This document shows positions 27,871 to 48,048 of a stretch of DNA of 64,000 bases, piece after piece. Made by a program: the position numbers and the translations under genes. Under the pieces are notes generated by a model. It ran no database searches and had not been told where the DNA came from. It saw only the letters and a program-made list of their open reading frames with translations. Within the stretch, counting starts at the first letter, position 1, and each line of letters starts with the position of its first letter. Source of the stretch: an uncultured Bradyrhizobium sp. (lineage in GTDB: Bacteria > Pseudomonadota > Alphaproteobacteria > Rhizobiales > Xanthobacteraceae); the NCBI RefSeq assembly GCF_947648125.1, contig NZ_CANSMR010000027.1, positions 27,018-91,017 on the forward strand. Reading direction: 5' to 3'.

Positions 27871-28794
27871 TCAGCCGCCGCGTTCGAACGGAATCGTCAG
27901 GGCCGAGGGCTGCCTGCTCTTTCCGACGAAGCCCGCGATGGCGACCAGCGCCAGCAGATATGGCAGCAGCAACAGCAGCGCGACCGGCACATCGAGCTGC
28001 AGCGCCGGCACCAGGAATTGCAGCGCGGTCGCAAAGCCGAACAGCAGGCACGCCGCCAGCGTGTACCAGGGGTTCCAGCCGCCGAAGATCACGGCCGTGA
28101 TCGCGAGGTAGCCTGCTCCCTTGGTCATGTTCTCGGTGAACGTATTGCTGTCCGCGACCGACATGAACGCGCCGCCGAGGCCGGCCAGGATGCCGGCGTA
28201 GAGCACGCCGAGATAGCGCGTCCTGGCCACGCTGATGCCGGCCTTGTCCGCGGCGCGCGGGTCCTCGCCGACCGCCCGCACCGCCAGTCCGAACGACGTG
28301 TACTTCAGGATCAGCCACGTCACGACGACCATTAGGATGCTGACATAGGCAAGGCCGGTCTGGTTCGCCAACGCCGGCCCGATCACCGGGATCTGAGCGA
28401 GCCAAGGCAGATTGAGCTGCGCGAAGCCGGGAATCGGATCGCGCGACAGCGGCCCGAAGATCTCACGGTAGAGAAACGTGGTTGTTCCCAGCGCCAGGAT
28501 GTTGAACCCGATCCCCACCACCAATTGATTTGCGCGTAATGTCACGCTCAACACGGCCTGGACCGCGGCAACCGCCATCGCGACCAATACGCCGGCCGCC
28601 ACGCCGAGAAGCGGCGAGCCGGTCGCCCACGATGCCAGTGCCGCCGTGAAGGCCGACATCAGCATCATGCCATCGAGGCTGAGATTGAGCACGCCGGCGC
28701 GCTCGCTCAGCATCTCGCCGGTTGCGGCGAAGATGATCGGAACCGCGAGACGAAGCCCGGAACCGATGAACACGGCCATTTGTTCGTCAATCAT
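27871..28794 (-). CDS. ABC importer permease, BMP/nucleoside type (second permease)
   Basis: A 307-residue membrane protein of the BPD_transp_2 family with about eight to nine helices; GEMLSERAGVLNLSLDGMM and ANQLVVGIGFNILALG are typical of the YufQ-like half. The start overlaps the preceding permease stop by 4 nt. Together with the partner permease, ATPase and BMP binding protein it forms a complete importer of the purine/nucleoside group. Confidence 0.88.
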   Translation of the reverse strand: MIDEQMAVFIGSGLRLAVPIIFAATGEMLSERAGVLNLSLDGMMLMSAFTAALASWATGSPLLGVAAGVLVAMAVAAVQAVLSVTLRANQLVVGIGFNILALGTTTFLYREIFGPLSRDPIPGFAQLNLPWLAQIPVIGPALANQTGLAYVSILMVVVTWLILKYTSFGLAVRAVGEDPRAADKAGISVARTRYLGVLYAGILAGLGGAFMSVADSNTFTENMTKGAGYLAITAVIFGGWNPWYTLAACLLFGFATALQFLVPALQLDVPVALLLLLPYLLALVAIAGFVGKSRQPSALTIPFERGG

Positions 28795-29885
28795 CGGGTC
28801 ACCTTTCGGTTGGTGAGGATTGCGGAGCCTGCAATGACAATGACGATCAGGCCCTGGCAGATCAGAACGACCGCGGACGGGACGTGCGCCGAGATTTCCA
28901 TGTTGATGGATCCCGATCGCAGGAATCCGAACAGCAACGCGCCGATCACCACGCCGGTGGCCGAGCCGCGCGACAGCAGACCGACTACCAGGCCGTCAAA
29001 TCCGTAACCGGACGAGAAATCGCTCGTCAGATAGAACTGCTGGCCGAGAATCATGATCGCGCCGCCGAGACCGCCCAGGCCGCCGGAGACCGTCATGGCC
29101 AGGATAACGTAGAAGCTCGTCCGCATGCCCGCACGGCGGGAGGCCGTCGCATTCAAGCCGACGGCACGCAGTCGCAGACCGAGCGTGCTGTGCTTGAGCA
29201 CCAGCCACACCACGACGACCGCGATCGCCGCGATCAGCAGACCGATATGGAGCGGAGATCCATTGTCGGGGAACAGCAGCGGCAGCTTGGTCGTGTCAGG
29301 AATCTCCGCCGATTCCGGCAGCGACGACACGTCGCTGATCGGCTTGCGCAGCAGGTGAAAGGACTCGACGGACCAGTACACCAGCGGCAGCGCAATGAAG
29401 CTGAGCAGCAATGTGCTGATGACCTCGTTGGTGCCGCGCGCAGCCTTGAGGAAGCCCGCGAGGCCGCCCCAGACGGCTCCGGCGATGGTCCCGACGGCGA
29501 GCGGCACGATGAACGCCAGTCCCAAGGGCAGGTCGCCGGCGCCATGCAGGGCCGCTGCCGTCGCGAACATGCCGCCCATCGCGATCTGCCCCTCGCCGCC
29601 CACATTGGTCAGGTTGGCACGGCTGGCGAAGATGAAGCCGAGACCGACCAGCGCGAGGCTGATGGCGCGATTGATCGAGGCACCGATGTTGAAATCGCTT
29701 CCGGCCATGCCGTCCCAGAAGGCTTCGATCGCCTCGAGGACGGACGCACCCGTGGCGGCGATGATGAGCAGGCCGATCCCGAGCGCGATAAGGGTCGATA
29801 TCACCGGAACCAGAACCTGCAACGGCACAAGCTCGAGCCTCGCGCCCTTTGCGACCCGCGCGAGCTTCGGATTTTTCATAACCAT
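28791..29885 (-). CDS. ABC importer permease, BMP/nucleoside type (first permease)
   Basis: About 364 residues with an N-terminal helix, a periplasmic loop (DVSSLPESAEIPDTTKLPLL) and a BPD_transp_2 core (FIFASRANLTNVGGEGQIAMGG, GLRLRAVGLNATASRRAGM), the YufP-like partner. I chose the ATG at 29885, which has AGG 6 nt before it; an ATG at 29906 would overlap the ATPase gene by 14 nt and is also possible. Confidence 0.86.
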   Translation of the reverse strand: MVMKNPKLARVAKGARLELVPLQVLVPVISTLIALGIGLLIIAATGASVLEAIEAFWDGMAGSDFNIGASINRAISLALVGLGFIFASRANLTNVGGEGQIAMGGMFATAAALHGAGDLPLGLAFIVPLAVGTIAGAVWGGLAGFLKAARGTNEVISTLLLSFIALPLVYWSVESFHLLRKPISDVSSLPESAEIPDTTKLPLLFPDNGSPLHIGLLIAAIAVVVVWLVLKHSTLGLRLRAVGLNATASRRAGMRTSFYVILAMTVSGGLGGLGGAIMILGQQFYLTSDFSSGYGFDGLVVGLLSRGSATGVVIGALLFGFLRSGSINMEISAHVPSAVVLICQGLIVIVIAGSAILTNRKVTR

Positions 29886-29892
29886 GGCCAAC

Positions 29893-31449
29893 CTAGACAT
29901 GCGCATGCCCCGACATCATCGCTCCGATCGCCTCGCGGCTGAACGACCCGGCGGCGAGCTCGCCAACCAGCCTTCCTCGGTAGATCACCGCGATCCGGTC
30001 CGACACCGCCATCAGCTCCTCGAGCTCGCTGGAGATCAAAAGCACCCCGAGGCCGTCATCGCGCGCGGCACGAATGCGATTGTAGACCGCCTCGATCGCG
30101 CCGACGTCGAGGCCGCGCGTCGGCTGCGCCGCGAGCAGGAACACCAGCGGATCGAGCGAGAGCTCGCGTGCAAGCACCGCCTTCTGTTGGTTGCCGCCCG
30201 AGAGGCTCGCCATCGAAACATCGGGGCTGCTCGCCCGCACGTCGAAGTCGCGCATCATCGCCTCCGCCGCCTTGCGGCGCGCCGACTTATCGAGCAGGCC
30301 GAAACGGCTGAATTTTCCGATCGCGCCGAGAAACAGGTTCTCGGCAACCGACAATTCCCTGATGCAGGCCACCGCATGGCGATCCTCGGGAACGATGCCG
30401 ACGCCCGCATCGGTGATCTCCTGCGGCGTGCAGCCGCCGACCTGTGTCCCGCCGACGACGATCGCGCCGGCGCTTGGCGAGGCGAGACCGGCCAGGATCA
30501 GTCCGAGCTCGGTCTGGCCGTTGCCCTCGACGCCCGCGATCCCGACGATCTCGCCGGTCCCGACCGTGAGGCTCAGGCCGTCGAGCCGCGGCACGCCATG
30601 CGGGTCGCGATACACGAGGTCCGAGATCTGCAGCACCGCCTCGCCCGGCGACACCGGGCCCGCTGCGTCCGAGGTGGGTTTCGCCGGCGTCTTGCCTTCG
30701 ATGTCGACCGCCGCAGCGAGCACCGAGCCTGCCGACTGGACGTCGCGGCCGACCATCGAGCGCACCAGCGACCGGATGTCGGCGCCCTCCATCGTGACGG
30801 TCTCGATGATCCGGCCCTGCCGCAGCACCGTGGTGCGATCGGCCACCCGGCTGATTTCGCCGAGCTTGTGCGTCACCAGGATCACGGACTTTCCGCGCAG
30901 CGCCACCTGGCGGCAGATCGCCAGCAGCGCGTCGATCTCATCCGGCTGCAGCACGGCCGTCGGCTCGTCGAGCACGAGCAGTTGCGGATCGCCGAGCAGG
31001 CATTTGATGATCTCGACCCGCTGCCGCTCGCCGACCGACAGCGCATCGATCCGCGCCTCGGGGTCGATTTCGAGGCCGTATTCGGCGGCGAGCTGCTCCA
31101 TCCGCACGATGATGTCCTGCGGCTTCAGCACCGCGCTGGCGCGACCGAGCATCAGGTTCTCGGCCACGCTCATGTTGGGCACCAGGCTGAAATGCTGATG
31201 CACCATCACGACGCCGCGCTGCAGCGCTTCCGCCGGGCCGCGCGGATCGAACGGCTCGCCGCCCAGCGTCATCGTGCCGGCATCCGGCCGGTGCACCCCG
31301 AACACCAGGTTGCACAATGTCGATTTGCCGGCGCCGTTCTCGCCAAGCAGGCAGTGCACCTCGCCGCGCTCGATCAGCAGCGATATGTCGTCGAGCGCGG
31401 TGAAAGCCCCGAAGCGCTTGGTCAAGCCAGACAGTTCGAGAAGAGCCAC
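29893..31449 (-). CDS. ABC importer ATPase with two nucleotide-binding domains, BMP/nucleoside type
   Basis: A 518-residue RbsA/YufO-like ATPase, GTG-started 2 nt after the binding-protein stop. The first domain is complete (Walker A GENGAGKST, signature LSVGERQRV, Walker B LLVLDEPTAVL). The second has the usual degenerate Walker A (GVEGNGQTE), signature LSGGNQQK and AAQPTRGLDVGA, so only the first site likely hydrolyses ATP efficiently. A linker of about 30 residues rich in Ala/Pro/Thr joins them. Confidence 0.9.
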   Translation of the reverse strand: MALLELSGLTKRFGAFTALDDISLLIERGEVHCLLGENGAGKSTLCNLVFGVHRPDAGTMTLGGEPFDPRGPAEALQRGVVMVHQHFSLVPNMSVAENLMLGRASAVLKPQDIIVRMEQLAAEYGLEIDPEARIDALSVGERQRVEIIKCLLGDPQLLVLDEPTAVLQPDEIDALLAICRQVALRGKSVILVTHKLGEISRVADRTTVLRQGRIIETVTMEGADIRSLVRSMVGRDVQSAGSVLAAAVDIEGKTPAKPTSDAAGPVSPGEAVLQISDLVYRDPHGVPRLDGLSLTVGTGEIVGIAGVEGNGQTELGLILAGLASPSAGAIVVGGTQVGGCTPQEITDAGVGIVPEDRHAVACIRELSVAENLFLGAIGKFSRFGLLDKSARRKAAEAMMRDFDVRASSPDVSMASLSGGNQQKAVLARELSLDPLVFLLAAQPTRGLDVGAIEAVYNRIRAARDDGLGVLLISSELEELMAVSDRIAVIYRGRLVGELAAGSFSREAIGAMMSGHAHV

Positions 31450-31451
31450 GG

Positions 31452-32438
31452 TCAGCCCACCTTGACTTTGATCTTGTTCGACAGCAGGTCGTCCTTGAGC
31501 TCCTTGATCTTGGCCTGGATCTCCGGCGTCGCACCGGCGCAGATCTCGATGTCGGCCGAGCGCGGCCCCATAGCGAGGCCGAACTGCTTGTACTCCGGGT
31601 GCCACGCTCCGGCGACGGCCTGGTCGATGGCGTATTCGACCATGAAGCCGATGCCGCTGACCGTGTAGGCGATGTAGAGCGGGTTGTTGTCGGAGCAGTA
31701 GTTGGTGTAGCTCCCGATCATCCTGGTGCCCTTCTCGCGCGCCGCCTGCTCCATTCCGCGCACGCCGAGATTGAGGATGTTGTAGTGGACGTCGGCCCCC
31801 TGCGCGATCGCGGCAAGGGTCGCCTCCTTCGCCTTGGCGACGTCGTCGAAGTCGCCGGTGTAGGTCACGAAGCATTTGGTATCCGGCTTGACGTACTTGG
31901 CGCCGTTCGCGAATTCCGTTCCGGTGTTGACGATGGCCGGAATTTCAAGACCGCCGACGTAGCTCACCGCCCCGTTCTTCGACATCATCGCGGCGACCGC
32001 GCCGGCAATGAAGCCGATCTGGGCCTGCAGCACGTCGTACTGCGCGACGTTTTCGGTCGGCTGTCCGGTCGGGCCGACGATGGAAAACTTCACCTTCGGG
32101 AATCGCTTGGCGACCTTGAGCACCGATGCCTGGGTCTGCCCCGCGGCGCCGATCACCATGTCGTTCTTGGTCGCGAGCGTGACGAGCGCCTGCTCCATGT
32201 CGGCGAACTTGACGTTCTCGATCGACGTGATCACGACCTTCTTGCCGTGGCGCTGCTCGGCCGCCTTCATGCCGTTATAGGCCGACTCCATCCAGCCATG
32301 GTCGGCCCGCGACCCCGGAATGAGAATGCCGATGCGCAGCGGCTTCGCATCGTCAGCGAAGGCGAGCCGGCCCGATGAACCGATGAAGGCTGCCGAGAGC
32401 AGACTTGTTTGCAGAAATGCACGACGGGTACCGTTCAT
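31452..32438 (-). CDS. BMP-family substrate-binding protein
   Basis: A 328-residue binding protein with a twin-arginine-like signal (TRRAFLQTSLLSAAFIG) and an AGGAGG site before the ATG. The mature part has the Bmp/Med family pattern (LRIGILIPGSRADHGWMESAYNG, MEQALVTLATKNDMVIGA, ISKNGAVSYVGG-like segment). BMP proteins bind nucleosides, purines or related small heterocycles. Its place between DUF1116/FdrA genes and the ATPase suggests that the importer supplies the carbamoyl substrate of those enzymes. Confidence 0.88.
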   Translation of the reverse strand: MNGTRRAFLQTSLLSAAFIGSSGRLAFADDAKPLRIGILIPGSRADHGWMESAYNGMKAAEQRHGKKVVITSIENVKFADMEQALVTLATKNDMVIGAAGQTQASVLKVAKRFPKVKFSIVGPTGQPTENVAQYDVLQAQIGFIAGAVAAMMSKNGAVSYVGGLEIPAIVNTGTEFANGAKYVKPDTKCFVTYTGDFDDVAKAKEATLAAIAQGADVHYNILNLGVRGMEQAAREKGTRMIGSYTNYCSDNNPLYIAYTVSGIGFMVEYAIDQAVAGAWHPEYKQFGLAMGPRSADIEICAGATPEIQAKIKELKDDLLSNKIKVKVG

Positions 32439-32535
32439 GTGTTTCCTCCTGTTCGTTCCCGGTGTCGCCGCATTGTTGCGGCATTTTTTCAGTCGGCGGC
32501 GCGACCGCGCCGTCGTTCTCAAGATCGCAGCAACG

Positions 32536-33984
32536 TCATCTCGCGGTCATCGCCGCCAGCGCGCCGACAGCGTCGACAAAGCACTTCATCGGAGCCTGCA
32601 CGACGCCGGCGCCGATGATCCCCATGCCCGGCTCCTTGTGCGCCGTTGCGGTGTTGATGACCGGCCGCATGCTCTCGTCCACAACCTTGCGGATGTCGAT
32701 GCCGACCGGCGCTCCGATGAAGTCGAGCATCGGCAGAGTGAAGCCGGGATTGCGACCGATCGTGACGTGCGCCATCTCGCGCGAATAGCGCAGCGCGTCC
32801 TGCGGCGTGCCGCCGACGAACTGGACCATCGCGGGAGCTGCGGCCATCGCGAACGCACCGAGCCCGGCGGTCTCGGTGATCGCGCTGTCGCCGATGTCGG
32901 GATTGGCATCGGCCTCGCTGAAGCCGGGCAGGAACAGGCCGACCGGGATGTCGGCCGGACCGACGAACCATTGCCCCTTCAGTCCGCTGACCCTGATGCC
33001 GACATTCACGCCGTTGCGCGCCATTGCGGTGACGATGCTGCTGAACGGCACGCCGTGCGCGGCATCCATGGTCGCCTTGCAGGCCGCCATCGACAGGCTG
33101 AGGAAGAACATGTCGTCCGCCCCGATCGTCCGCAGCGTCTCGTGGACGATGTCGCGCGAGATCGGGGACTTGAGCAGCGATTCCGTGACGGCGCGATACA
33201 GCAGCAAGGTCGCAGCGGTGTTGCGATTATGGACGTCGTCGCCCATGTGCAGCGACTGCGACATCAGCGGCTTCAACGGCAATCCGCCGTCGATGCCGGC
33301 GACGGCGGCCTTCAGGCATGGAGCCAGCACATTCTCGATCAGCTTGAGGCCGTCGATCACCTCGGGCGCGAAGGCACCGAACCGCAATGTCTTGGCGCCG
33401 CCGGATTCCATCATCGGCGCATAGGCGCGATTGCCGGTGGTCTGGTTCAGCACCACGAAGAGCGGCATCGAGGGCGAGATGATCCCGGTCATCGGCCCGA
33501 CCGCGCCGAATTCATGGCACGGCGCGAAGCGGATGCCGCCTGCCGCGACGAGTTGCTCGGCTTCTTGCTGGGTCGTCGCCCATTTTTCGTAAAGGATTGC
33601 GCCGACGACGGCCCCCTTCATCGGGCCGCACATATGGTTCCAGGCGATCGGCGGACCGGCATGGAGCAGCGTCCGGCCCATGTCCGGCCAGACCTCGGAT
33701 GCGTGCGCCGCGACGTCGACCCATACCGGCTGCGCGGTCAGGATGCGCTCGAGCACTTCCGCATTGGCGCGATCGATCCGTGACCCCAGGCAGTCGGCAT
33801 CACCGGCGTCGCCAACCAGTTGCGCGAGGCTCCAGGCGACCTCGGGACTTCCGTCGCCGACCGGCTGCCACTGCAGACGCACCAGCAGGGCCCCGCTGCT
33901 CTCGACACCGCGATCGAGGCCGGAGGCGCCAAGGCTGATGACCGATGTCTTGTTCTGGAGCGCGGAAGAGGCTGCGTTCATCAT
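32536..33984 (-). CDS. DUF1116 protein, FdrA partner, copy 1 (AllG/YlbE-like)
   Basis: A 482-residue member of the DUF1116 family. Conserved blocks include RTLLHAGPPIAWNHMCGPMKGA, CHEFGAVGPMTGIISPSMP, HMGDDVHNRN and ANPDIGDSAITETAGLGAFAMAAAP. In Escherichia coli the homologue YlbE works with FdrA and YlbF in oxamate carbamoyltransfer. This copy carries about 65 extra N-terminal residues compared with the second copy at 38280. The ATG overlaps the FdrA-1 stop by 4 nt and the gene is 97 nt upstream of the BMP importer genes, so import and carbamoyl transfer are coexpressed. Confidence 0.87.
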   Translation of the reverse strand: MMNAASSALQNKTSVISLGASGLDRGVESSGALLVRLQWQPVGDGSPEVAWSLAQLVGDAGDADCLGSRIDRANAEVLERILTAQPVWVDVAAHASEVWPDMGRTLLHAGPPIAWNHMCGPMKGAVVGAILYEKWATTQQEAEQLVAAGGIRFAPCHEFGAVGPMTGIISPSMPLFVVLNQTTGNRAYAPMMESGGAKTLRFGAFAPEVIDGLKLIENVLAPCLKAAVAGIDGGLPLKPLMSQSLHMGDDVHNRNTAATLLLYRAVTESLLKSPISRDIVHETLRTIGADDMFFLSLSMAACKATMDAAHGVPFSSIVTAMARNGVNVGIRVSGLKGQWFVGPADIPVGLFLPGFSEADANPDIGDSAITETAGLGAFAMAAAPAMVQFVGGTPQDALRYSREMAHVTIGRNPGFTLPMLDFIGAPVGIDIRKVVDESMRPVINTATAHKEPGMGIIGAGVVQAPMKCFVDAVGALAAMTAR

Positions 33985-35579
33985 CGTTCTCCACCTTGCA
34001 TCGCGCGGCGCCCCGTGGCGTTGTCGTCCGCGGCCACGCGGCTCGCGATAGCTTGCGCGGAAAGCGCTGCGCCCGTGCTGCTGCCGACAATCTCGGCGCC
34101 GGCGTCCGCCAACATGGCTTTCTGGGTCTCATAGGGCTGCGGATCTGAACCCGTGCCGCAGACGAAGCAGACCACGGGAAGCTCCCGCCCCTGCGCTCGC
34201 GCCGCGGCCTTCGCCCGGCGGATCGCCGGAGCCAGGATCTCTGCCGGATTGGGGTGGCTGCCGTAACCAAGCACGACGTCCAGAACGATGCAGGCGACGG
34301 TCGGATCGTCCGCCTCCTTCAGCAACCGTTCGATCCGCACGCCGTAGTCGATCATCGGATGCGGACGTCCCACCGTGAATTCGTCACTGCCCAGATCGAT
34401 CGCCGTGTGCCCGTGGCTCTCTGCCACGTCGGCGAGACGATCTGCGCCGGCAAGCGGCGCGTTCGACCGGGCACGAATGCCCGCCGCCCGCCAAATGGTC
34501 TGGGCTTCCGAGCAGAACGTACCACCGGAGTAGAGACCGCGCAGGTAGCGCTGCGAGGGTGCCAGCGACGCACAAACCCTCGTTGCGAACTGTTCGATGG
34601 ACTGTTCGTCACCCCCGGGTTGGCGCGCTCCCGCAAGCACGATGACCTGCCGCGCCGTCTCCTCAAGCGACGACGTGCGGTGAACATTGCCGGCGGATGC
34701 TGCCGGCTCGCCGCCGAGGAAGCAGATCACCACCGGCTTTCCGATCGCACGAGCGCGCTCGATGACCCGCTTCTGCACATCTGGCGCAGGAGGCTTGGAG
34801 ACGATGGCGACAACTTTGGTCTGCGCGTCGGCGGCCAGCAGCTCCAGGCCCTGCAACATCGTGATGCCACCGACCTCGCTGGAAACGTCGTGGCTGCCAG
34901 TGCCGATCGCCTGCGAGATGCCCTGGCCATGACGATGGATCTGGCACATCACCTCTTGCAGGCCGGTGCCCGACGCTCCGACGAGCCCGATCACACCCCG
35001 CCGAACGACGTTGGCAAATCCAAGCGGCACGCCGTTGATGATGGCCGTGCCGCAATCCGGTCCCATCACCAGCAGGCCCTTCCGCGCCGCAACGCGCTTG
35101 ATGGCCACCTCTTGTTCGATCGGCACGTTGTCGCTGAACAGCAATACGTTCAGGCCCTGGCGCAGCGCCTTCAAGGCTTCTGCCGCGGCATAGGGGCCCG
35201 GCACCGAGATCAAGGCGAGGTCGGCATGATCGGCGATCGCGACGCCGCCGGAGATTGAACGCGGCGGTGCTTCCGCCGCGGCTTCAGTCGATCCGCCCTT
35301 CGGTTCTTCGCCGGCGATCAGGGAGTGGATCTCGCGCTCCGCGGCTACGCGCTTTTCGGGCGCATCGTCCGCCACGACGATCATGATATCGCCCGGCTTG
35401 GCGCTCTCGAGCGCCGGACTCATTAGCCCGGCCTGCTGCAGGAACTCCTTGTTGCTGCGCGTTCCCATCAGCAGCGTGACCCGCTGCACGCCGGTCCGCG
35501 CGACCGTGACCTGCGAAATCCGCATCAACGACACGGAATCCTTATACAGGTTCGCCCTTATGCTGGATTGAATGGCCAT
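33981..35579 (-). CDS. fdrA: FdrA-like carbamoyltransferase subunit, copy 1
   Basis: A 532-residue FdrA protein, related to the succinyl-CoA synthetase fold. Visible conserved blocks are NLYKDSVSLMRIS at the start, SVPGPYAAAEALKALRQG, LLVMGPDCGTAIING (GPDCGT at 173-178), GLVGASGTGLQEV (201-206) and DLGSDEFTVGRPHPMID. It is clearly diverged from copy 2 (36775) but collinear with it, with an insertion near residues 85-108. With DUF1116 it should transfer a carbamoyl group from a ureido acid to phosphate; in Escherichia coli the substrate is oxalurate. It leads the operon containing the BMP importer and the cysteine hydrolase. Confidence 0.87.
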   Translation of the reverse strand: MAIQSSIRANLYKDSVSLMRISQVTVARTGVQRVTLLMGTRSNKEFLQQAGLMSPALESAKPGDIMIVVADDAPEKRVAAEREIHSLIAGEEPKGGSTEAAAEAPPRSISGGVAIADHADLALISVPGPYAAAEALKALRQGLNVLLFSDNVPIEQEVAIKRVAARKGLLVMGPDCGTAIINGVPLGFANVVRRGVIGLVGASGTGLQEVMCQIHRHGQGISQAIGTGSHDVSSEVGGITMLQGLELLAADAQTKVVAIVSKPPAPDVQKRVIERARAIGKPVVICFLGGEPAASAGNVHRTSSLEETARQVIVLAGARQPGGDEQSIEQFATRVCASLAPSQRYLRGLYSGGTFCSEAQTIWRAAGIRARSNAPLAGADRLADVAESHGHTAIDLGSDEFTVGRPHPMIDYGVRIERLLKEADDPTVACIVLDVVLGYGSHPNPAEILAPAIRRAKAAARAQGRELPVVCFVCGTGSDPQPYETQKAMLADAGAEIVGSSTGAALSAQAIASRVAADDNATGRRAMQGGER

Positions 35580-35810
35580 TGCCTTGTCGTTCCCTTGAAT
35601 CCCGCAGGCTGCTTGTTTGTCTTGTGTTTGAGCTTGAGCCAGCGGCCAGCTCGATTGCCTGATCAGAATGAGGCGCCGACGCACCTCAACTGCTTCAACT
35701 CGGTGAGCGCGGGCGCCACTGCGGCCATCAAGAGCGGACCGCCATCTTGCTCGACACTCGAATGCAGATTGGCGCGGGCGGATGTCCCGTTGATGCGCCA
35801 ATCCCGGCGG

Positions 35811-36770
35811 TTAGTGAACGACGTGCGTCCCCGTCTCGCCCCGCAGCGCCGCCATGGCGCAATCGAGGTGACTGATGATCGCGCGCTTGCCGCCGCCCTC
35901 GAGAAACCGGATCGCCGCATCGACCTTGGGTCCCATGCTTCCCGGAGGAAAATGTCCCTCACGGTGGTACGCCTTGATCTCCTCGAGGCTGACCTGATCC
36001 AGATCCTTCTTGTTCGGCTTTCCGAAATTCACCGCGACGCGCGGGACCGCGGTCAGGATCAGCAACTCTTCGATACCCAGCACATTCGCGATATGAGCGG
36101 ATGTCAGATCCTTGTCGATGACCGCCGGCACGCCGGTGCGCACGCCCTTCGCATCACGAACCACGGGAACACCGCCGCCGCCTCCCGCAATGACGATCGT
36201 CCCGCGCTTGACCAATGCGTCGACCAGCGAGATGTCGCAGACATGCTTGGGTTTCGGCGACGGCACGACATGACGCCAGCCGCGCCCTGAATCCTCACGC
36301 ATCGCCCAATTGAGTTCAGCGCTGATCTTCTTCGCTTCGTCCTCGGAGAAGAACGGCCCGACGAACTTGGTCGGATTCTTGAACGCGGGATCGTCCCTGT
36401 CCACCTCTACCTGGGTCAGCAGGCTTGCCACATGTCGCTGGTTGCCCTGTTCGCGCAGGGCATTCTCGATCGCCTGCATCAGGAGGTAGCCGATGCCGCC
36501 CTGGCTGTGCGCGACGCAGATGTCCATGTCCATCGGCGGGATTCGGCTCATCGTCAGCATCTGGCGCATCATGATCTTGCCGACGACCGGGCCGTTGCCG
36601 TGCGTGATGACCAGCTCGTTGTCGAGTTGCGCAAGCGGCAGCAGCGCTTCCGCGGTGATCTGCGCGACCGACTTCTGCTCCTGGGACGTACCCCTGATAT
36701 CCTCGGGGTGCACCGCATTGCCACCGATCGCGACCACCAGGCGACGCGGCACGTCATTGAGTGTACGCAT
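35811..36770 (-). CDS. arcC: Carbamate kinase
   Basis: Transfers phosphate from carbamoyl phosphate to ADP, giving ATP, CO2 and ammonia. The 319-residue protein shows the family blocks LVVAIGGNAVHPED, VITHGNGPVVGKIM, VVPSPKPKHV, TIVIAGGGGGVPVV and VIDKDLTSAHIANVLG. A GGAGG site precedes the ATG and only 4 nt separate it from FdrA-2. Directly following FdrA and DUF1116 genes, it is the expected consumer of their carbamoyl phosphate; no arginine deiminase or ornithine carbamoyltransferase gene is near, which argues against an arginine pathway role. Confidence 0.93.
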   Translation of the reverse strand: MRTLNDVPRRLVVAIGGNAVHPEDIRGTSQEQKSVAQITAEALLPLAQLDNELVITHGNGPVVGKIMMRQMLTMSRIPPMDMDICVAHSQGGIGYLLMQAIENALREQGNQRHVASLLTQVEVDRDDPAFKNPTKFVGPFFSEDEAKKISAELNWAMREDSGRGWRHVVPSPKPKHVCDISLVDALVKRGTIVIAGGGGGVPVVRDAKGVRTGVPAVIDKDLTSAHIANVLGIEELLILTAVPRVAVNFGKPNKKDLDQVSLEEIKAYHREGHFPPGSMGPKVDAAIRFLEGGGKRAIISHLDCAMAALRGETGTHVVH

Positions 36771-36774
36771 TTCC

Positions 36775-38283
36775 TTACCTCCCGGCATTCTGGACGATGG
36801 CAACCGCAAGCTCGCACGCCTGCGCGTTCGACGGCGCAACGAGGATTCCGGCCTGCTCCAGTTTCCTGACCTGCGCGGAGCGCCCTTGCGGATCCTGCTC
36901 CGTGCCGACGACGGACGCGATCAACGCCGGCGCATCCTGTCCGCGATCGGCGACGATCTTCGTCAGGTGCTCGGCGGGATCGGCATGCGCGCCATAACCG
37001 AGCACAAGATCGAGCAGGACCACCGAAAGATCGCGATTCTTGAGCGCAGCACGCAACGCATCGTCGCGCACCGAGGGGTCGATCATCGGGTGCGGCCGGC
37101 CACGGGTATATTCGTCGTCGCCGAGGTCGATCAGCCGGTCCCGTCCAGCGTTCGGCTCGACGCCGAGCTTGGCCACGCCGGGGATCGCGGCGTTCGACGC
37201 CACCTTCCGGCCTGCGGCAGCGAGGATCACCTGGGCTTCGGCACACAGCGTTCCGCCGGCGAACAAGCCCTCGATCCCGCCTCGGCCGCTCCGCGGAAGC
37301 CGTGATGCAACGGCGTTCGCATCGAAGCCCGCGCCGATCTTCTTGTCTCCCAGTGCGAGCTCCGCGGCGCCTTTCAGCGTCGGCGAGAAGCGGGCGTTCG
37401 GCGGCAGCTCGATCTCCGAAGCACCGATGAAGCACACGGTGTACGACTTCCTGCTTCTGCCGATCCGCTTAATGACGGACCTGGCGACATCGGGATGCGG
37501 CGGCTTCGAGATCAGCACCACGTGATCGGTTTCCGGATCGGACTCGAATGCATCGATCGCCATCAGCGTGGTGATGCCGCCGATATCCTTCTTCAGATCG
37601 CGCCCGCCGACCCCGATGGCGTGGGAGATTCCCGCGCCGGCTTCAGAGATCAGGCACGAGACCTCCTGCGTTCCGGTCCCCGACGCACCGATGATGCCGA
37701 TCCTGCCGCGCTTGATCTTGTTGGCGAACGCCAGCGGCGCGCCGCCGATCACGGCCGTTCCGCAGTCCGGCCCCATCATCAGGAGGCCGGCCGCCCGCGC
37801 CTGCTGCTTGAGCGACAATTCGTCCTCGAGGGACACGTTGTCGCTGAACATCAGGACATGCAGGCCGCGATTGAGCGCCTTGCGGGCCTCGGAGGCGGCG
37901 AACTCGCCGGGAACGGAGATCAGCGCAAGATTGATCTCCGGCCTGACCTTCACGGCGGCGGCGATCGAGTGCGGCTGCCAGGCAGCCTGTGCCTCGCCCT
38001 GGGTCTTCGGCTTGTCGAGCGACTTGATCGCATTGTCGAGGGCTTCGCGGGCAGCGGTCCCGGACTCGGCCTTGACCGCGATCACGAGGTCATTGCCCTT
38101 CACGGCAGCGCCCTCCTCGAGCAGCCCCGCATTGCGCATGATCGCAACGTTCGACGGAGTCCCCATCATCAACGCCGCCTCGATCACGCCGGGCGAGCCG
38201 GCCACCTCGCGCGACAGCCGCATCAGCGCGACCGAGTCGAGATAGAATCCCTTGCGGACCTCGTTCAGGACAACGACGTTCAT
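36775..38283 (-). CDS. fdrA: FdrA-like carbamoyltransferase subunit, copy 2
   Basis: A 502-residue second FdrA protein: NEVRKGFYLDSVALMRLS, SVPGEFAASEARKALNRG, LLMMGPDCGTAVIGG (GPDCGT 171-176), GIIGASGTGTQEV (199-204) and DLGDDEYTRGRPHPMID. It overlaps the DUF1116-2 stop by 4 nt and is followed 4 nt later by arcC, so FdrA, DUF1116 and carbamate kinase are coupled. The divergence from copy 1 suggests a different substrate or an obligate heteromer of the two copies; sequence alone does not decide. Confidence 0.88.
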   Translation of the reverse strand: MNVVVLNEVRKGFYLDSVALMRLSREVAGSPGVIEAALMMGTPSNVAIMRNAGLLEEGAAVKGNDLVIAVKAESGTAAREALDNAIKSLDKPKTQGEAQAAWQPHSIAAAVKVRPEINLALISVPGEFAASEARKALNRGLHVLMFSDNVSLEDELSLKQQARAAGLLMMGPDCGTAVIGGAPLAFANKIKRGRIGIIGASGTGTQEVSCLISEAGAGISHAIGVGGRDLKKDIGGITTLMAIDAFESDPETDHVVLISKPPHPDVARSVIKRIGRSRKSYTVCFIGASEIELPPNARFSPTLKGAAELALGDKKIGAGFDANAVASRLPRSGRGGIEGLFAGGTLCAEAQVILAAAGRKVASNAAIPGVAKLGVEPNAGRDRLIDLGDDEYTRGRPHPMIDPSVRDDALRAALKNRDLSVVLLDLVLGYGAHADPAEHLTKIVADRGQDAPALIASVVGTEQDPQGRSAQVRKLEQAGILVAPSNAQACELAVAIVQNAGR

Positions 38284-39530
38284 GACACACCCAAATCCTT
38301 GGCGATCGCGACGATCGCCTGCTGGAAGCACGCCAACGGCGCCTTGACCACGCCGGCGCCGACCTGCCCGATGCCGGGCTCGCGATGCGCGATGCCTGTG
38401 TTGATGACGGGCACCACGCCGGAATCGACGACCAGGCGGACATCGATGCCGGTCGGCACGCCCGCGAAGTCCATTGCGGCGATGGTCCATTCCGGATTCT
38501 GCGCAACCGTGATCTCGCCCATCGAGCGGGTGAAGTTGCCGGCCTCGGACGGCGCGCCGGCCCCGACGAAGCCCGCGACAGCCGGCGCCGCCGCCATCGC
38601 AAATCCGCCCAGACCGATCGTCTCGACGATCGCGGAATCGCCCATGTCCGGGTTGGCGTCCTTCTCGGAATAGCCGGCAAAATAAAGCCCCTCCGGCATT
38701 TCGACCGGCGCGGTGAACCATTGCTCGCCGAGTCCGCTGACGCGGATCCCGAAATCGGTGCCGTTGCGGCACATCGTGGTGACGATGGTCGAACCCCGAA
38801 TGCCATTGGCCGGATCGGTGATCGCCTTGCCCATCGCCATCGCGATGTTGAGGAAGAACTGATCGTTCTGCCCGATGAACGCGAGGCATTCGGCGAGAAC
38901 GGCGTTGTCGGTCGAGGTTCGCGCCATCCAGGGCGCGATCTCGCGCAGGAAGACGCTCGAGCAGGCCAGATTGCGCTGATGCAGCTCGTCGCCCATCGAC
39001 AAGCCCCGCGCGACGATCGATTTCAGGTCGATGCCGCCTGCGGCACGGATCGCCTTGCCGAGCGTCGGACCGAACACGTCGCGCAGCCAGGCGAGTCGCT
39101 TCAGCACGCTGGCGTCGTTGCCGCCGAAGCGCATCACCTTGCCGAGCCCTTCGTTGATCGCGCAATAAGCTCGGTTGGAGAAGCGCGCGTTCTCGACCAC
39201 GAACAGCGGCATCGACATCGTCGTCATGCCGGTCATCGGGCCGACCGCGCCGAAGTGGTGGTTCGGGTGAAATTCGATCTCGCCACCGGCGGCGAGCTTG
39301 GTCGCAGTCGACAGATCCTTCGCCCATCCCTCGAACACGATGGCGCCCGCGACCGCACCGCGCATCGGACCGCACATCCTGTCCCAGGTGATCGGCGGTC
39401 CGGCGTGGAGGATCATCCGTTCGCGCAGACCCGGGATCAATTCGCGGGCGGGAACGATGTCGATCAGCCGCGGCTCCCCTTCGAGGATCCGGGCGAGCGC
39501 CTGTTGGTTTGCGTCTTCGATCAGTTTCAT
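38280..39530 (-). CDS. DUF1116 protein, FdrA partner, copy 2
   Basis: A 416-residue DUF1116 protein with the same blocks as copy 1 (MILHAGPPITWDRMCGPMRGA, HHFGAVGPMTGMTTMSMP, SMGDELHQRN, ANPDMGDSAIVETIGLGGFAMAAAP) but a short N-terminus. The ATG at 39530 begins KLIEDANQQALARILEG. It lies 10 nt after the 62-residue gene, which looks like the N-terminal piece missing here, so the two may together make what copy 1 carries in one chain. Confidence 0.87.
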   Translation of the reverse strand: MKLIEDANQQALARILEGEPRLIDIVPARELIPGLRERMILHAGPPITWDRMCGPMRGAVAGAIVFEGWAKDLSTATKLAAGGEIEFHPNHHFGAVGPMTGMTTMSMPLFVVENARFSNRAYCAINEGLGKVMRFGGNDASVLKRLAWLRDVFGPTLGKAIRAAGGIDLKSIVARGLSMGDELHQRNLACSSVFLREIAPWMARTSTDNAVLAECLAFIGQNDQFFLNIAMAMGKAITDPANGIRGSTIVTTMCRNGTDFGIRVSGLGEQWFTAPVEMPEGLYFAGYSEKDANPDMGDSAIVETIGLGGFAMAAAPAVAGFVGAGAPSEAGNFTRSMGEITVAQNPEWTIAAMDFAGVPTGIDVRLVVDSGVVPVINTGIAHREPGIGQVGAGVVKAPLACFQQAIVAIAKDLGVS

Positions 39531-39540
39531 CGGTGCGCCC

Positions 39541-39729
39541 TCACACACCGAGCTTCGCGAGCAGGGCCGCCATCTGCGGATCTCCACCCGCCGACGGCTT
39601 CCAGTCGACGTGAACGACGTCGATGCCGCAGTCGCGAAGGTCCTTCACGAACCCCTCAAGCCCGACATTCACGACTTCGACCTTGCGCGCCAGCAATTGC
39701 TGATACTGCGGCCTATCCTGATCCGTCAT
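39541..39729 (-). CDS. 62-residue FdrA/DUF1116 companion protein
   Basis: A small acidic/basic protein beginning TDQDRPQYQQLLARKVEVVN, with the core VGLEGFVKDLRDCGIDVVHV and a WKPSAGGD motif. The pattern (inherited glycine-rich loop before W-x-P-x-A-G-G-D) is one I recall from the ends of larger FdrA/DUF1116 proteins. First gene of the DUF1116-2/FdrA-2/arcC operon, 34 nt downstream of a good promoter. Likely a structural part of the carbamoyltransferase complex; this is inference. Confidence 0.7.
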   Translation of the reverse strand: MTDQDRPQYQQLLARKVEVVNVGLEGFVKDLRDCGIDVVHVDWKPSAGGDPQMAALLAKLGV

Positions 39730-39766
39730 CGTCTCCGCCCTAATAAAGTTCGTTTTCGTTGCGCCA

Positions 39767-39795
39767 AGTAAATAAGAAAACACTTACTTCGTCAA
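39767..39795 (-). promoter_or_regulatory. Promoter of the FdrA-2/carbamate kinase operon
   Basis: On the minus strand TTGACG (39795-39790) and TTTACT (39772-39767) are spaced by 17 bp, 37 nt before the first ATG. The interval is bounded by AAGTAA and TTACTT, a 6-bp inverted repeat that a repressor could use. Confidence 0.55.
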
Positions 39796-39869
39796 GACCG
39801 AATTCCCGGAAAAGTGCGAATTTCCGTATCCGCTCGAATGGCGGACCGGCCGAAGCGCAATCCCGCTTT

Positions 39870-39899
39870 AAAAAAAGTGCTCCGAACTTCGTTCGGAGC
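39870..39899 (-). terminator. Rho-independent terminator of the DUF2877/Liv operon
   Basis: On the minus strand GCTCCGAAC pairs perfectly with GTTCGGAGC around a 3-nt loop and is followed by AC and seven T residues. It ends the operon whose last gene stops at 39936 and separates it from the FdrA-2 operon. Confidence 0.85.
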
Positions 39900-39935
39900 A
39901 GTCTGGGAGAACTCGAAATTTGATCTGCAACGCTG

Positions 39936-40877
39936 TCACCGCGCGCAAAGAGCGTGGCGCAGGACGATCAGACTGCCGGCAAATGCATCCAGTCCGGATG
40001 TATGCCCGATCGCCGTCAGAGCCGTGAGGGCGCGACGAAATCCGGCGGCCTCCCCGCTCATCGTTGCGTGGATAGCAGCGTGCAGTGCCGCCGCGCCATA
40101 ACCCAGTGCCGCCGCACGCAGATGGATTCGGCTGATGTCGTTGGTGCCGTCGAGCAGCGCGCGGCAATGCTCCCACAATGCGTCGCGACATTCGATGAGT
40201 CCGAGCGCAGCCAACGCGATCAGCGCACCGCCGATCAGATCGTCGCCGGACGGCGTAAGCCCCGGCCCGAGACCGATCAGGCTGGCGAGCCCGGACTCGC
40301 GATCCGCATCGCTATCCGAGCCTGCGAGGATTAGCTCCAGTGCGGCGAGACCGGGCATGGCAGCCCGAACGAGCGCAGAGGCGTCGTCCGGAGCATGTCC
40401 GGCCCCGACCACGGCGAGGCCCTCCGCAATCAGATCGCCGGTCCACACCTCATCAACCGCATCAAGGCCGCGTCGCAGGCTGGCCGTCGACCAGTGTGGT
40501 ACAGCGGGCGGCGCCCAGACGGACCGCGTTGCCAGATTCGCGAGCGGCGTCGCTCCGATCCACAGCATGGAGTCCGCGACCCGCACGGGATCGCCGACCG
40601 CAAGGCCCGACCATCGGAAGTCGCCGACCACGTGCAACGGACCCGATCCGATGCCGATCCGTCCAACGCAGATCCAGATTCCGTCGATCACGGCGTAGAA
40701 CGAACGTTCGAACACGGCGACGACCTGGCCCGCGGCGCGATCGCGAAGCGCCCTGTCGGCGAGAAGCCCCACTTCCACGCCGGCGCAGACCGTCGCTGCG
40801 GGCTCGGGACGCCGCTCGTCCGGCGCGCTCGCGCGACCTGGCTGCCTTCCGTCAGCTTCGCGGCCTCCGACCAACAT
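39936..40877 (-). CDS. DUF2877 protein (AllH/YlbF-like)
   Basis: A 313-residue DUF2877 protein; the diagnostic block is GLGPGLTPSGDDLIGGALIAL at about 202-222. In Escherichia coli the homologue YlbF is encoded with FdrA and YlbE and belongs to the same oxamate carbamoyltransferase. Only one copy is present here against two FdrA and two DUF1116 copies. Unusually it is the last gene of the Liv-type importer operon, 15 nt after the fused transporter gene, and a strong terminator separates it from the FdrA operon. Confidence 0.85.
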   Translation of the reverse strand: MLVGGREADGRQPGRASAPDERRPEPAATVCAGVEVGLLADRALRDRAAGQVVAVFERSFYAVIDGIWICVGRIGIGSGPLHVVGDFRWSGLAVGDPVRVADSMLWIGATPLANLATRSVWAPPAVPHWSTASLRRGLDAVDEVWTGDLIAEGLAVVGAGHAPDDASALVRAAMPGLAALELILAGSDSDADRESGLASLIGLGPGLTPSGDDLIGGALIALAALGLIECRDALWEHCRALLDGTNDISRIHLRAAALGYGAAALHAAIHATMSGEAAGFRRALTALTAIGHTSGLDAFAGSLIVLRHALCAR

Positions 40878-44339: not shown

Positions 44340-45542
44340 TCAGTTCTTGAACGGCAGGATGTGGTTGTCTTCGAAGTGGGCCCAGATGTAGTCCTGCGCC
44401 GTCAGCGCATCGTGCTTGTCCTGGGCGAACGGCTTCTCATAGGTCTTGATCAGGCCTTCCAGCCGGTCGATTCCGTAGAAGCCGTCACGAATGGCGGTCG
44501 GATCGGTGCTGCCGGCCTTCTGGATAGCGCCGGCGATCACCAGCACGCTGTCATAGGCGTTGGCAAAGCCGACCGCAGGCGTCACGTCCGCCGGGCCCTT
44601 GATGTCCGGATACTTCGCCTGCAACTCGGCGAGCACGCGCTTGCCGACCGGCGAGAGGTTGCCGAAGAAGCTGTAGGTCTGCACGAAGACGACGCTCTCG
44701 GCGCTCGGCCCGGCGAGCTCGGTGAAGCGGCCGCCGGCCGGCCCCCAATGCGACACGATCGGCGGCGCCCAGCCCATCCGGTCGAGCGATTTCACGACCT
44801 GCGAGGATGGACCGACATTGCCGACCAGGAACAGGGAGTCGGCGCCGGCCTGCTTGAGCCGGGACAGTTGCGCGACCACGTCGACGTCGTTCGCCTCGAA
44901 CTTCTCGACACCCGCCGGTTCGATCCCTGCCGCCTTCAGCGCCGCGCGCAGGCCGTGCTCGTTCGATTCGCCCCAGGGATTGTTGACGAGGATGAGGCCC
45001 GGCTTCTTGGCGGCGAAGGTCTTGCCGGCGAACGCAACGATCGCCTTGTCGACCTCGTCGTCCATCGCCGAGACGCGGAACACATAGTTGGACGCGGCGC
45101 CGTTCTGCGTGATGTTGGTTCCGGCCGCCCATGGCACCACGAACGGCATCTTGACGTTGTTGACGAACGGCACGATCGCAAGCTGGACCGGCGTATCGAG
45201 ACCGCCGAGCAGCACCGCGACCTTCTCGCGCTGGATCAGTTCGCGCGCGGCGGTCAGCCCCTTGGCGGGATTGCTTTCATCGTCACGGCGCACCAGCTCC
45301 AGTGGACGGCCGAGCACGCCGCCTTTCGCGTTGATCTCCTCGATCGCGATCGTGGCGCCGCGGGTCAACGCTTCGCCGGCGCGCGCCGACTGCCCAGACA
45401 GCGCGGTGACCAGGCCGATCTTGATCGGCTCGGCGGCCCGTGCCCGCTCCGCGAGCGGCACAGAGCCGATGAGAATGGCGAGCGCGCCCTGCAAGACAAC
45501 GCGGCGGCACAGCCCGGTGATGGGGGTACAAGCGTAGCTCAT
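44340..45542 (-). CDS. Substrate-binding protein of the fused Liv-type importer
   Basis: A 400-residue Peripla_BP_6 protein with a signal that contains a twin-arginine-like CRRVVLQG and ends at ERARAAEP. The mature part starts IKIGLVTALSGQSARAGEALTRGA. GGAGGAATCG precedes the ATG at 45542. It leads the operon binding protein, LivH, LivMGF fusion, DUF2877, so its ligand is likely related to the carbamoyl or ureide substrates. Confidence 0.9.
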   Translation of the reverse strand: MSYACTPITGLCRRVVLQGALAILIGSVPLAERARAAEPIKIGLVTALSGQSARAGEALTRGATIAIEEINAKGGVLGRPLELVRRDDESNPAKGLTAARELIQREKVAVLLGGLDTPVQLAIVPFVNNVKMPFVVPWAAGTNITQNGAASNYVFRVSAMDDEVDKAIVAFAGKTFAAKKPGLILVNNPWGESNEHGLRAALKAAGIEPAGVEKFEANDVDVVAQLSRLKQAGADSLFLVGNVGPSSQVVKSLDRMGWAPPIVSHWGPAGGRFTELAGPSAESVVFVQTYSFFGNLSPVGKRVLAELQAKYPDIKGPADVTPAVGFANAYDSVLVIAGAIQKAGSTDPTAIRDGFYGIDRLEGLIKTYEKPFAQDKHDALTAQDYIWAHFEDNHILPFKN

Positions 45543-45617
45543 TTCTGCGATTCCTCCCGCTCCGACGGCTCCCAAGCCGCCTCTGGTCCGCTGCCGCTGT
45601 CTCCGCGGCCTTGACGG

Positions 45618-46668: not shown

Positions 46669-46685
46669 GAAACTGGAGACTTGAA

Positions 46686-47906: not shown

Positions 47907-48048
47907 ACATGGAGGAATCGCACTTGACGAACAGTCGTAATGCCGATCTCAATCCCAGCTGCTTGCGCCGGGAACCGGTCCGCTGCCCAATGAGGCCTGA
48001 TGCGGACGTGCCTTGCGTGAATACCCGAGCCCAGGCAAGGTTGACGCC

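What the first reader, a model, noticed from the sequence alone, without database searches (positions are those of the whole stretch)
31452..40877. Two diverged FdrA/DUF1116 pairs with one carbamate kinase and one DUF2877
Seen: two complete but different FdrA proteins (502 and 532 residues), two DUF1116 proteins, one 62-residue companion, one carbamate kinase and one DUF2877 protein, spread over three adjacent operons, two of which include importers. Known: in Escherichia coli FdrA, YlbE and YlbF with a carbamate kinase are tied to oxalurate-to-oxamate carbamoyl transfer. Inference: this is an energy-conserving system that phosphorolyses ureido compounds to carbamoyl phosphate and ATP, possibly with two substrates or as a four-subunit heteromer. 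A paired layout with dedicated importers is unlike the E. coli locus and may be an undescribed catabolic system.
Basis: partly seen in the sequence, partly recalled or inferred. Interest (0 to 1): 0.85.

Follow-up and report, generated by a model that had tools for sequence, protein, structure and literature searches.

The report
Two oxamic transcarbamylase sets, one AllH
A Bradyrhizobium chromosome carries two old, intact gene sets for an enzyme family that breaks down purine-waste-like ureides while saving energy, each with its own importer but with only one copy of a partner subunit and one carbamate kinase between them, which suggests a plug-in design for using more than one such nitrogen source.

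Summary
In detail: all named genes are present and intact in three minus-strand operons of a Bradyrhizobium. They belong to the AllFGH oxamic transcarbamylase family (genes identified in 2024), with carbamate kinase AllK. Set 2 (S, G2, F2) is AllF/AllG-like; set 1 (F1, S=G1) lies in the half of the trees that holds E. coli YahF/YahG. E. coli K-12 also has two sets, each with its own AllH and kinase. The 62-residue companion is a detached domain of the enzyme (C-terminus of E. coli AllF, N-terminus of YahG and G1). Both sets are old and under purifying selection. In the genus 20 genomes have both, 5 only set 2, none only set 1; all 25 have one AllH and one carbamate kinase. Set 2 travels with a branched-chain-type importer, a cytosine-deaminase-like hydrolase and an HpxW-like (oxamate amidohydrolase) protein; set 1 with a BMP/Nup importer and a RutB/BiuH-like hydrolase, whose orthologues in four of six plasmid loci read sit with amidases and no F/G. 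Best reading: two substrate modules, one for oxalurate, sharing AllH and AllK. No substrate or activity was tested. New variant of a known kind.

The parts
48836..50455 (-). HpxW-like Ntn hydrolase of the gamma-glutamyltranspeptidase family; candidate oxamate amidohydrolase of module A
   Evidence: PF01019 416.9 bits; best PDB match 5hft, 291.7 and 260.5 bits for its two chains, next 2nlz 273.5 (5hft is recalled as Klebsiella HpxW, the listing says gamma-glutamyltranspeptidase); Thr353 at the start of the small chain, T in 27 of 27 aligned rows; conserved beside module A
48013..48786 (+). TetR-type regulator of module A (weakly RutR-like)
   Evidence: TetR_N and TetR_C_29; RutR 47.9 bits, far below cut-off 368; conserved with the module
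45837..47906 (+). Cytosine-deaminase-like amidohydrolase of module A; conserved domain starts near 46700, true start probably inside the ORF
   Evidence: PRK05985 543.2 bits over cut-off 408; best PDB match 6nbo N-isopropylammelide isopropylaminohydrolase
44340..45575 (-). Substrate-binding protein of a branched-chain/urea-type ABC importer (LivJ-like)
   Evidence: Peripla_BP_6 196.7 bits
43424..44299 (-). Permease (LivH-like)
   Evidence: BPD_transp_2 126.3 bits
40893..43427 (-). Permease fused to two ATPases (LivM-LivG-LivF)
   Evidence: BPD_transp_2 plus two ABC_tran stretches
39936..40877 (-). AllH (DUF2877), the single copy, at the end of the importer operon
   Evidence: PF11392 71.4 bits; one per genome in the 25 of 265 genomes of the genus that have it
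39878..39900 (-). Intrinsic terminator hairpin after AllH
   Evidence: 10 pairs followed by T-run
39541..39729 (-). S: free-standing 62-aa domain protein, equivalent to the C-terminus of E. coli AllF and the N-terminus of YahG and G1
   Evidence: blastp E 1.7e-10 to AllF 502-554, 4.6e-8 to YahG 3-50, 4.0e-6 to G1 9-56; PDB 3dmy residues 421-473
38280..39530 (-). AllG copy 2 (DUF1116), AllG-like clade
   Evidence: 52% to E. coli AllG; PF06545; PDB 3clq; trees
36775..38283 (-). AllF copy 2 (FdrA), AllF-like clade
   Evidence: 41% to E. coli AllF, 40% to YahF; PDB 3dmy; trees
35811..36770 (-). AllK, catabolic carbamate kinase, single copy
   Evidence: TIGR00746 367.7 bits over 358.25; one over cut-off per genome in 25 of 25 genomes of the genus that have AllH
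33981..35579 (-). AllF copy 1 (FdrA), in the half of the tree that holds E. coli YahF
   Evidence: 44% to E. coli YahF, 40% to AllF; trees
32536..33984 (-). S=G1: S domain (about 33817-33969) fused to AllG copy 1 (about 32542-33795)
31452..32438 (-). BMP-type substrate-binding protein of module B
   Evidence: PF02608 126.4 bits in the longer ORF 31452-32522
29893..31449 (-). NupA-like ABC ATPase of module B
   Evidence: two ABC_tran stretches in the longer ORF 29893-31875
28791..29906 (-). NupB-like permease
   Evidence: BPD_transp_2 121.1 bits
27871..28794 (-). NupC-like permease
   Evidence: BPD_transp_2 148.2 bits
26999..27826 (-). IHL: isochorismatase-like cysteine hydrolase of module B, related to RutB and BiuH
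   Evidence: PF00857 134.2 bits; RutB 152.9 and BiuH 143.9 bits, both far below cut-offs 377.95 and 370; Asp, Lys and Cys of the fold aligned to 6azo (roles recalled)

Best explanation
The locus holds two substrate modules built on one oxamic-transcarbamylase (AllFGH) platform. Module A (branched-chain-type importer, cytosine-deaminase-like hydrolase, S-G2-F2, HpxW-like protein) takes up a ureide precursor, phosphorolyses oxalurate to oxamate and carbamoyl phosphate, and hydrolyses oxamate to oxalate and ammonia, where in E. coli oxamate is a dead end. Module B (BMP/Nup importer, isochorismatase-like hydrolase, F1, S=G1) does the same chemistry on a second route, ending either in oxalurate or in another N-acyl urea. 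Both F-S-G sets use the single AllH as a common subunit, and their carbamoyl phosphate goes to the single carbamate kinase, which makes ATP and carbamate. Shown here: gene content, clades, module linkage, one AllH and one kinase per genome in the genus, conserved family residues, purifying selection. Taken from the literature: the AllFGH and AllK reactions. Inferred: the substrates, AllH sharing as a physical fact, the HpxW activity, and the S domain as the F-G connector.
For: Family membership. One AllH in each of 27 genomes that have two AllG hits over 260 bits and were searched for AllH: 20 of the genus, G649-G652, G079, G143, G283. One carbamate kinase over cut-off in 25 of 25 genomes of the genus. 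The single AllH lies in module A in Bradyrhizobium but in the Nup/IHL module in Variovorax soli, whose HpxW/Liv module lacks it (L115 against L036); in G143 one set has the kinase and no AllH beside it, the other AllH and no kinase (L020, L021). Module A with HpxW-like protein in 5 of 5 set-2-only genomes of the genus and in L009. Set-1 G type with a second G in 23 of 23 genomes. IHL orthologues (53-69%): six of 280 matching plasmid records were read; none has F or G within 9 kb, four have a short amidase of or next to family PRK08310, three of these with BMP/Nup. No departure in either copy at 67 (G) and 79 (F) columns at least 95% invariant. dN/dS of F1, G1, F2, G2 0.04-0.16.
Against: No substrate or activity was tested. 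No E. coli AllA-E homologue was listed in the window and no allantoinase over the TIGR03178 cut-off in 11 genomes (best 288.2 against 357.85), so the source of oxalurate is unknown. G055 has an F and a truncated S=G on a 4.5 kb contig (AllG 243.7 and 238.9 bits in the genome) but no AllH hit at all. Pandoraea, L035 and G079 have two G but only one F over cut-off, which fits two separate F-S-G modules less well. G079 and G283 have two kinases. In Variovorax soli the Nup/IHL module carries a Yah-type set, not the set-1 clade, and one Pantoea and one Streptomyces IHL orthologue have neither amidase PRK08310 nor F/G, so module B is not a fixed unit. AllH is the fastest-evolving of the genes compared (dN/dS 0.23-0.37). 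The HpxW-like assignment rests on similarity; substrate may differ.
Confidence: 0.5

Rival explanations
1. One heteromeric enzyme: F1, F2, G1, G2, S and H form a single complex.
For: Conserved tandem layout in 7 of 7 named Bradyrhizobium loci (at least two of these are the same genomes as rows of the genus survey); two G with one F in Pandoraea, L035 and G079; set 1 never seen without a second G.
Against: Set 2 with one H and one K occurs alone in 5 of 25 genomes of the genus and in L009. Each set keeps the invariant residues, its own S domain and its own importer.
Confidence: 0.12
2. Both sets act on the same substrate, oxalurate, and only the uptake and pre-processing routes differ.
For: IHL orthologues sit with HpxX-like, AtzE/HpxY-like and HpxZ genes in Paraburkholderia and with a gene annotated hpxZ in Roseomonas; one HpxW-like gene and one kinase serve the locus.
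Against: F1/F2 and G1/G2 are old separate clades kept side by side; one set would suffice for one substrate.
Confidence: 0.25
3. Module B handles biuret- or triuret-like compounds (carboxybiuret, allophanate or biuret phosphorolysed to carbamoyl phosphate).
For: IHL resembles BiuH and RutB; in comammox Nitrospira and archaea allFGHK lies beside biuH and bmpA-nupABC (PMC12625717, passages and first part of section 8; Nitrospira L056, L060, L064 here).
Against: IHL is far below the BiuH and RutB cut-offs; the authors of PMC12625717 treat the two pathways as separate; the Paraburkholderia orthologue sits with an oxalurate-catabolism gene.
Confidence: 0.2
4. One copy is decaying or non-catalytic.
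For: None found.
Against: No departure at 67 and 79 invariant columns; dN/dS 0.08-0.14 for F1 and G1 and 0.04-0.16 for F2 and G2 against three congeners.
Confidence: 0.03

Closest known systems
E. coli allFGHK (fdrA-ylbE-ylbF-ybcF), oxamic transcarbamylase plus catabolic carbamate kinase
   Same: Same four families; S domain present (inside AllF); set 2 nearest to AllF/AllG by trees
   Different: Two F-S-G sets for one AllH and one AllK; S free or fused to G; dedicated ABC importers; HpxW-like protein; no allA-allE homologue listed in the window
E. coli yahE-yahF-yahG-yahI-yahJ (function not known to me)
   Same: DUF2877, FdrA-like, S=DUF1116, carbamate kinase and an amidohydrolase in one cluster; F1/G1 lie in the same half of the trees
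   Different: It has its own DUF2877 and kinase; F1/G1 are not in the immediate YahF/YahG clade, while the set of Variovorax L115 is
Hpx oxalurate pathway (HpxXYZ, HpxW) of Klebsiella
   Same: HpxW-like protein in module A; HpxZ beside IHL orthologues in Paraburkholderia (tested) and Roseomonas (annotation)
   Different: The oxalurate step here would be phosphorolytic (AllFGH) rather than hydrolytic
biuH/bmpA-nupABC/allFGHK clusters of ammonia oxidisers (PMC12625717)
   Same: BMP/Nup importer, isochorismatase-like hydrolase and AllFGHK side by side
   Different: Two sets with one AllH and one AllK, a branched-chain-type importer and an HpxW-like protein here; I saw no mention of a second set in the parts of that paper that I read

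Membership tests
AllFGH oxamic transcarbamylase | AllF (FdrA) subunit | tested here: met
   F1 511.0 and F2 481.2 bits to PRK06091 (cut-off 433); 3dmy
AllFGH oxamic transcarbamylase | AllG subunit (PF06545) | tested here: met
   275.2 and 307.8 bits, cut-off 27
AllFGH oxamic transcarbamylase | AllH subunit (PF11392), needed for activity in E. coli | tested here: met
   71.4 bits, cut-off 25; only one for two sets
AllFGH oxamic transcarbamylase | Coupled carbamate kinase | tested here: met
   TIGR00746 367.7 over 358.25
AllFGH oxamic transcarbamylase | Oxalurate + phosphate to oxamate + carbamoyl phosphate | not testable with these tools
   needs enzyme assay
E. coli ALL gene cluster | allA-allE genes beside allFGHK | tested here: not met
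   no E. coli AllA-E hit listed for the window at E 1e-8
HpxW oxamate amidohydrolase | GGT-type Ntn fold closest to HpxW with catalytic Thr | tested here: met
   5hft best PDB match (its identity as HpxW is recalled), Thr353 in 27 of 27 rows
HpxW oxamate amidohydrolase | Oxamate hydrolysis | not testable with these tools
   needs enzyme assay
Biuret hydrolase BiuH (NF050097) | score over the curated cut-off | tested here: not met
   IHL 143.9 against 370
Ureidoacrylate amidohydrolase RutB (TIGR03614) | score over the curated cut-off | tested here: not met
   IHL 152.9 against 377.95

The most novel reading that the evidence does not exclude
AllFGH is not one enzyme for one substrate but a modular phosphorolytic platform: interchangeable F-S-G sets, each tied to an importer and a pre-processing hydrolase, plug onto a common AllH and carbamate kinase, and replace the energy-wasting amidohydrolases (HpxY/AtzE and small amidases) in several N-acyl urea pathways, with the roaming S domain joining F to G. 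In this reading set 1 has a substrate other than oxalurate.
Probability: 0.35. Interest if true: 0.75.

Novelty: new variant of a known kind. Interest (0 to 1): 0.52.

Why it matters
The oxamic transcarbamylase was matched to genes only in 2024, in one organism. This locus gives a natural test of which subunit sets the substrate and what AllH does, because two sets appear to share it. It also suggests a complete, energy-saving route from oxalurate to oxalate, in a genus whose legume hosts can carry ureides (the host link is recalled, not tested), and shows that the small S domain is a near-constant fourth element of the enzyme.

Tried and rejected
Recent duplication or decay of one copy: rejected. 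Obligate double heteromer: not supported. Functional link to the neighbouring gcl-hyi-glxR genes, which would have recalled the E. coli ALL cluster: dropped, because in the stretches read they adjoin module A in the window and in 5 of 6 other two-set genomes but in 0 of 5 set-2-only genomes. Naming IHL as BiuH or RutB: rejected on cut-offs. Allantoin catabolism as the oxalurate source: no allantoinase over cut-off in 11 genomes; other allantoinase types and ureidoglycolate dehydrogenase were not searched in whole genomes, so open. In one search the L033 rows for G2, F2 and LivMGF compare paralogues and were not used. In one search E. coli AllF (L003) was counted as 'free S' although its S is fused to F; I corrected that by hand. 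In one search rows under 500 bits (G) or 480 bits (F) and loci from L105 on were left out. Cluster counts include shadow reading frames, so only clusters with a Pfam-checked representative were used.

No structure of AllH could be predicted, so its role stays inferred; the best PDB sequence match of AllH had E 0.57.
Full report
1. What is there. On the minus strand, in order of transcription: an importer operon ending in AllH (45575 to 39936), a strong terminator hairpin (39878-39900), a second operon S-G2-F2-AllK (39729 to 35811), a gap of 231 bases, and a third operon F1-(S=G1)-BMP-NupA-NupB-NupC-IHL (35579 to 26999). Pfam now names DUF1116 'AllG' and DUF2877 'AllH'. In E. coli, AllF, AllG and AllH together are oxamic transcarbamylase; I read the first of six parts of PMC11326118 (abstract, introduction, start of results) and passages of the rest. 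AllK as carbamate kinase is taken from its introduction, which cites earlier work that I saw only in a listing (PMC9843812).

2. The genus. The locus matches Bradyrhizobium species (B. altum 98% over G1); I therefore call the window's genus, G handles 'same genus', Bradyrhizobium. The window lies in an 8.57 Mb genome of 71 contigs.

3. The 62-residue companion is part of the enzyme. It matches residues 502-554 of E. coli AllF (E 1.7e-10), residues 3-50 of YahG and residues 9-56 of G1, and in the AllF crystal structure 3dmy residues 421-473. Among 113 AllG rows over 480 bits from the window and the fetched loci, the S domain is fused to the N-terminus of G in 83, a separate gene just before G in 26, at the C-terminus of F in 1 (E. 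coli AllF), and not found in 3, one of these at a contig edge (the rows include near-identical Bradyrhizobium loci; loci L001, L002, L005 and L105-L117 were left out). Because the domain is found on the F side, on the G side, or free, F and G are probably joined through it; this is an inference.

4. Two old sets. F1 and F2 are 40% identical, G1 and G2 48%. Trees put F2/G2 with E. coli AllF/AllG, and F1/G1 in the half that holds YahF/YahG; the join of E. coli AllF to the F2 clade is 92/88 and thus not fully supported, that of AllG is 99/96 (E. coli rows are long branches). The nearest kin of F1/G1 outside the genus are in a Hyphomicrobiales MAG (L033) and Pandoraea (L034). Neither copy departs from the family at 67 (G, 107 rows) or 79 (F, 91 rows) columns that are at least 95% invariant. 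Against three congeners (L028, L030, L032) dN/dS is 0.110-0.144 for F1, 0.081-0.132 for G1, 0.110-0.163 for F2, 0.038-0.075 for G2, 0.018-0.034 for AllK and 0.228-0.368 for AllH. So both sets are kept by selection.

5. Co-occurrence. Of 265 genomes of the genus, the window's included, 28 have AllG: 20 have G2 and G1 on one contig 5.5-5.8 kb apart, 5 have G2 without G1 (G422, G442, G476, G525, G610; G610 also has two distant relatives), 3 have only a distant relative (G421, G453, G609), none has G1 without G2 (the G1/G2 call rests on score and place, checked by trees for the loci fetched). AllH is found in exactly the 25 with G2, one each. A carbamate kinase over the cut-off is found once in each of the 25. 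Because G1 and G2 lie in one locus, these genomes are not independent events. Outside the genus the set-1 G clade was found in the genomes of L033, L034 and L035, each with a second G and one AllH (L035's place in the clade is 90/87). F over the cut-off: genome of L033 2, L034 1, L035 1, L036 2, G143 2, G283 2, G079 1. In all, 27 genomes with two AllG hits over 260 bits have one AllH each. G178, G256 and G309, with one strong AllG and weaker ones, also have one AllH; G055, with two AllG hits of 243.7 and (truncated) 238.9 bits, has none, a result against the rule. E. coli K-12 has two DUF2877 genes. Kinase outside the genus: one in the genomes of L034, L035 (302 bits, partial) and L036 and in G143, two in G079 and G283, only fragments at contig ends in L033's genome. 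In G143 one set (L020) has the kinase and no AllH, the other (L021) AllH and no kinase in the stretch read.

6. The modules. Module A is HpxW-like, TetR, cytosine-deaminase-like hydrolase, LivJ-LivH-LivMGF, AllH, S, G2, F2, AllK. It is present in 5 of 5 set-2-only genomes of the genus, read in two overlapping stretches each. Of the two-set genomes I read the HpxW side in six (G513, G533, G625, G626, G478, G624): all six have HpxW-like, TetR and the hydrolase, and for G513 the rest was read too. It is also in L009, a genus of the same family, and in L033's genome on two contigs. Module B is F1, S=G1, BMP, NupABC, IHL: 7 of 7 named Bradyrhizobium loci, L033 and Pandoraea, where the importer comes first. 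Judged by their coordinates, L026 and L032 are the same genomes as G393 and G449, so the counts overlap. In Variovorax soli NupABC and IHL genes (67-78% to the window's; the contig ends before any BMP gene) sit with H-F-S=G of Yah type, while its HpxW/Liv module has F-K-S=G without H: again two sets and one AllH, but with AllH in the other module. This is the strongest hint that AllH is shared.

7. Chemistry of module A. The HpxW-like protein is closest to 5hft among solved structures (E 1.6e-85 and 4.4e-76 for its two chains; next 2nlz, 5.1e-80 for the whole); that 5hft is Klebsiella HpxW is recalled. That HpxW turns oxamate into oxalate and ammonium is stated in passages of PMC5270733, citing Hicks and Ealick 2016, which was not held. 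The GGT-family cluster occurs in 12 of 100 sources compared (window and 11 of 99 loci). In E. coli oxamate is a dead end (PMC12535856, passages). A transcarbamylase beside an oxamate amidohydrolase makes oxalurate the likeliest substrate of set 2.

8. Chemistry of module B. IHL keeps the Asp, Lys and Cys positions of the fold (their roles are recalled) and is related to RutB and BiuH, but far below both cut-offs. The plasmid collection has 280 records with a match; I read six loci (53-69% identity), chosen for variety. None has F or G within 9 kb. Rhizobium, Paraburkholderia and Variovorax paradoxus have BMP/NupABC and an adjacent amidase of or close to family PRK08310 (387.9, 415.7 and 396.9 bits, cut-off 391); Rhizobium and V. 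paradoxus also a GGT-family gene; Paraburkholderia adds an HpxX-like gene (34.4 bits, below its cut-off 70), an AtzE-family gene and HpxZ (208 bits over 135); Roseomonas has the amidase (506.4) and a gene annotated hpxZ but no BMP; Pantoea has a BMP/Nup importer with another amidohydrolase; Streptomyces has none of these. So the importer-hydrolase pair is served by hydrolytic amidases in some bacteria and by an F-S-G set in others. Which step F1/S=G1 replaces, and so its substrate, stays open.

9. Known or new. AllFGH, AllK and HpxW are known, and a 2025 paper reports bmpA-nupABC, biuH and allFGHK side by side in ammonia oxidisers (PMC12625717, passages and the first of two parts of section 8). 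The CanOE paper (PMC3364942, passages) had proposed ylbF and fdrA as candidates in 2012. I found no paper on two sets with one AllH, on the S domain, or on Bradyrhizobium AllFGH in searches for FdrA with DUF1116, oxamate carbamoyltransferase, AllFGH, oxamic transcarbamylase, HpxW or oxamate amidohydrolase, DUF2877, oxalurate or HpxY (20 of 48 hits listed), FdrA with Bradyrhizobium, and YahF/YahG/YahE. Apart from the five papers named above with call numbers, hits were seen in listings only, and that library lacks most subscription journals.

10. Verdict. What would make it important is proof that set 1 has another substrate and that AllH is a shared subunit.

Noticed in passing
L012, L013, L014, L016, L017, L019, L025: Distant AllG-family proteins stand without any F, S, H or K found in the fetched stretch, so AllG may have another, separate role.
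   Followed up: no
L129 (E. coli plasmid, 5789-12999): A conjugative E. coli plasmid carries cysteine hydrolase, DUF2877, FdrA, DUF1116, carbamate kinase and a cytosine permease; 96 of 181 plasmid records matching G1 are Escherichia.
   Followed up: partly
L034 8233-14689; L035 2217-8344: One F with two different S=G genes, one AllH and one kinase: a one-F, two-G arrangement.
   Followed up: partly
window 50582-55243: gcl, hyi, a GlxR-sized ORF and an IclR-type regulator lie next to module A, as in the E. coli allantoin region, but among genomes read only in two-set ones; probably a flank.
   Followed up: yes
L006, L022, L044, L068, L070, L071, L079, L095, L098, L102, L104: A cluster of AtzD/TrzD-type ring-opening hydrolases (representative L079 tested) lies near AllFGHK sets, hinting at N-acyl urea substrates other than oxalurate.
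   Followed up: no
18 loci of cluster 8, (representative L101 8010-8834): A PF04199 'cyclase' hydrolase recurs near AllFGH, often in the same loci as xanthine-dehydrogenase-like subunits (clusters 7, 11, 20).
   Followed up: no
window 39936-40877 (AllH): AllH has a strongly conserved GxGxGLTPxGDD and GxTSGxD pattern although the rest varies, which looks like an active or binding site.
   Followed up: no
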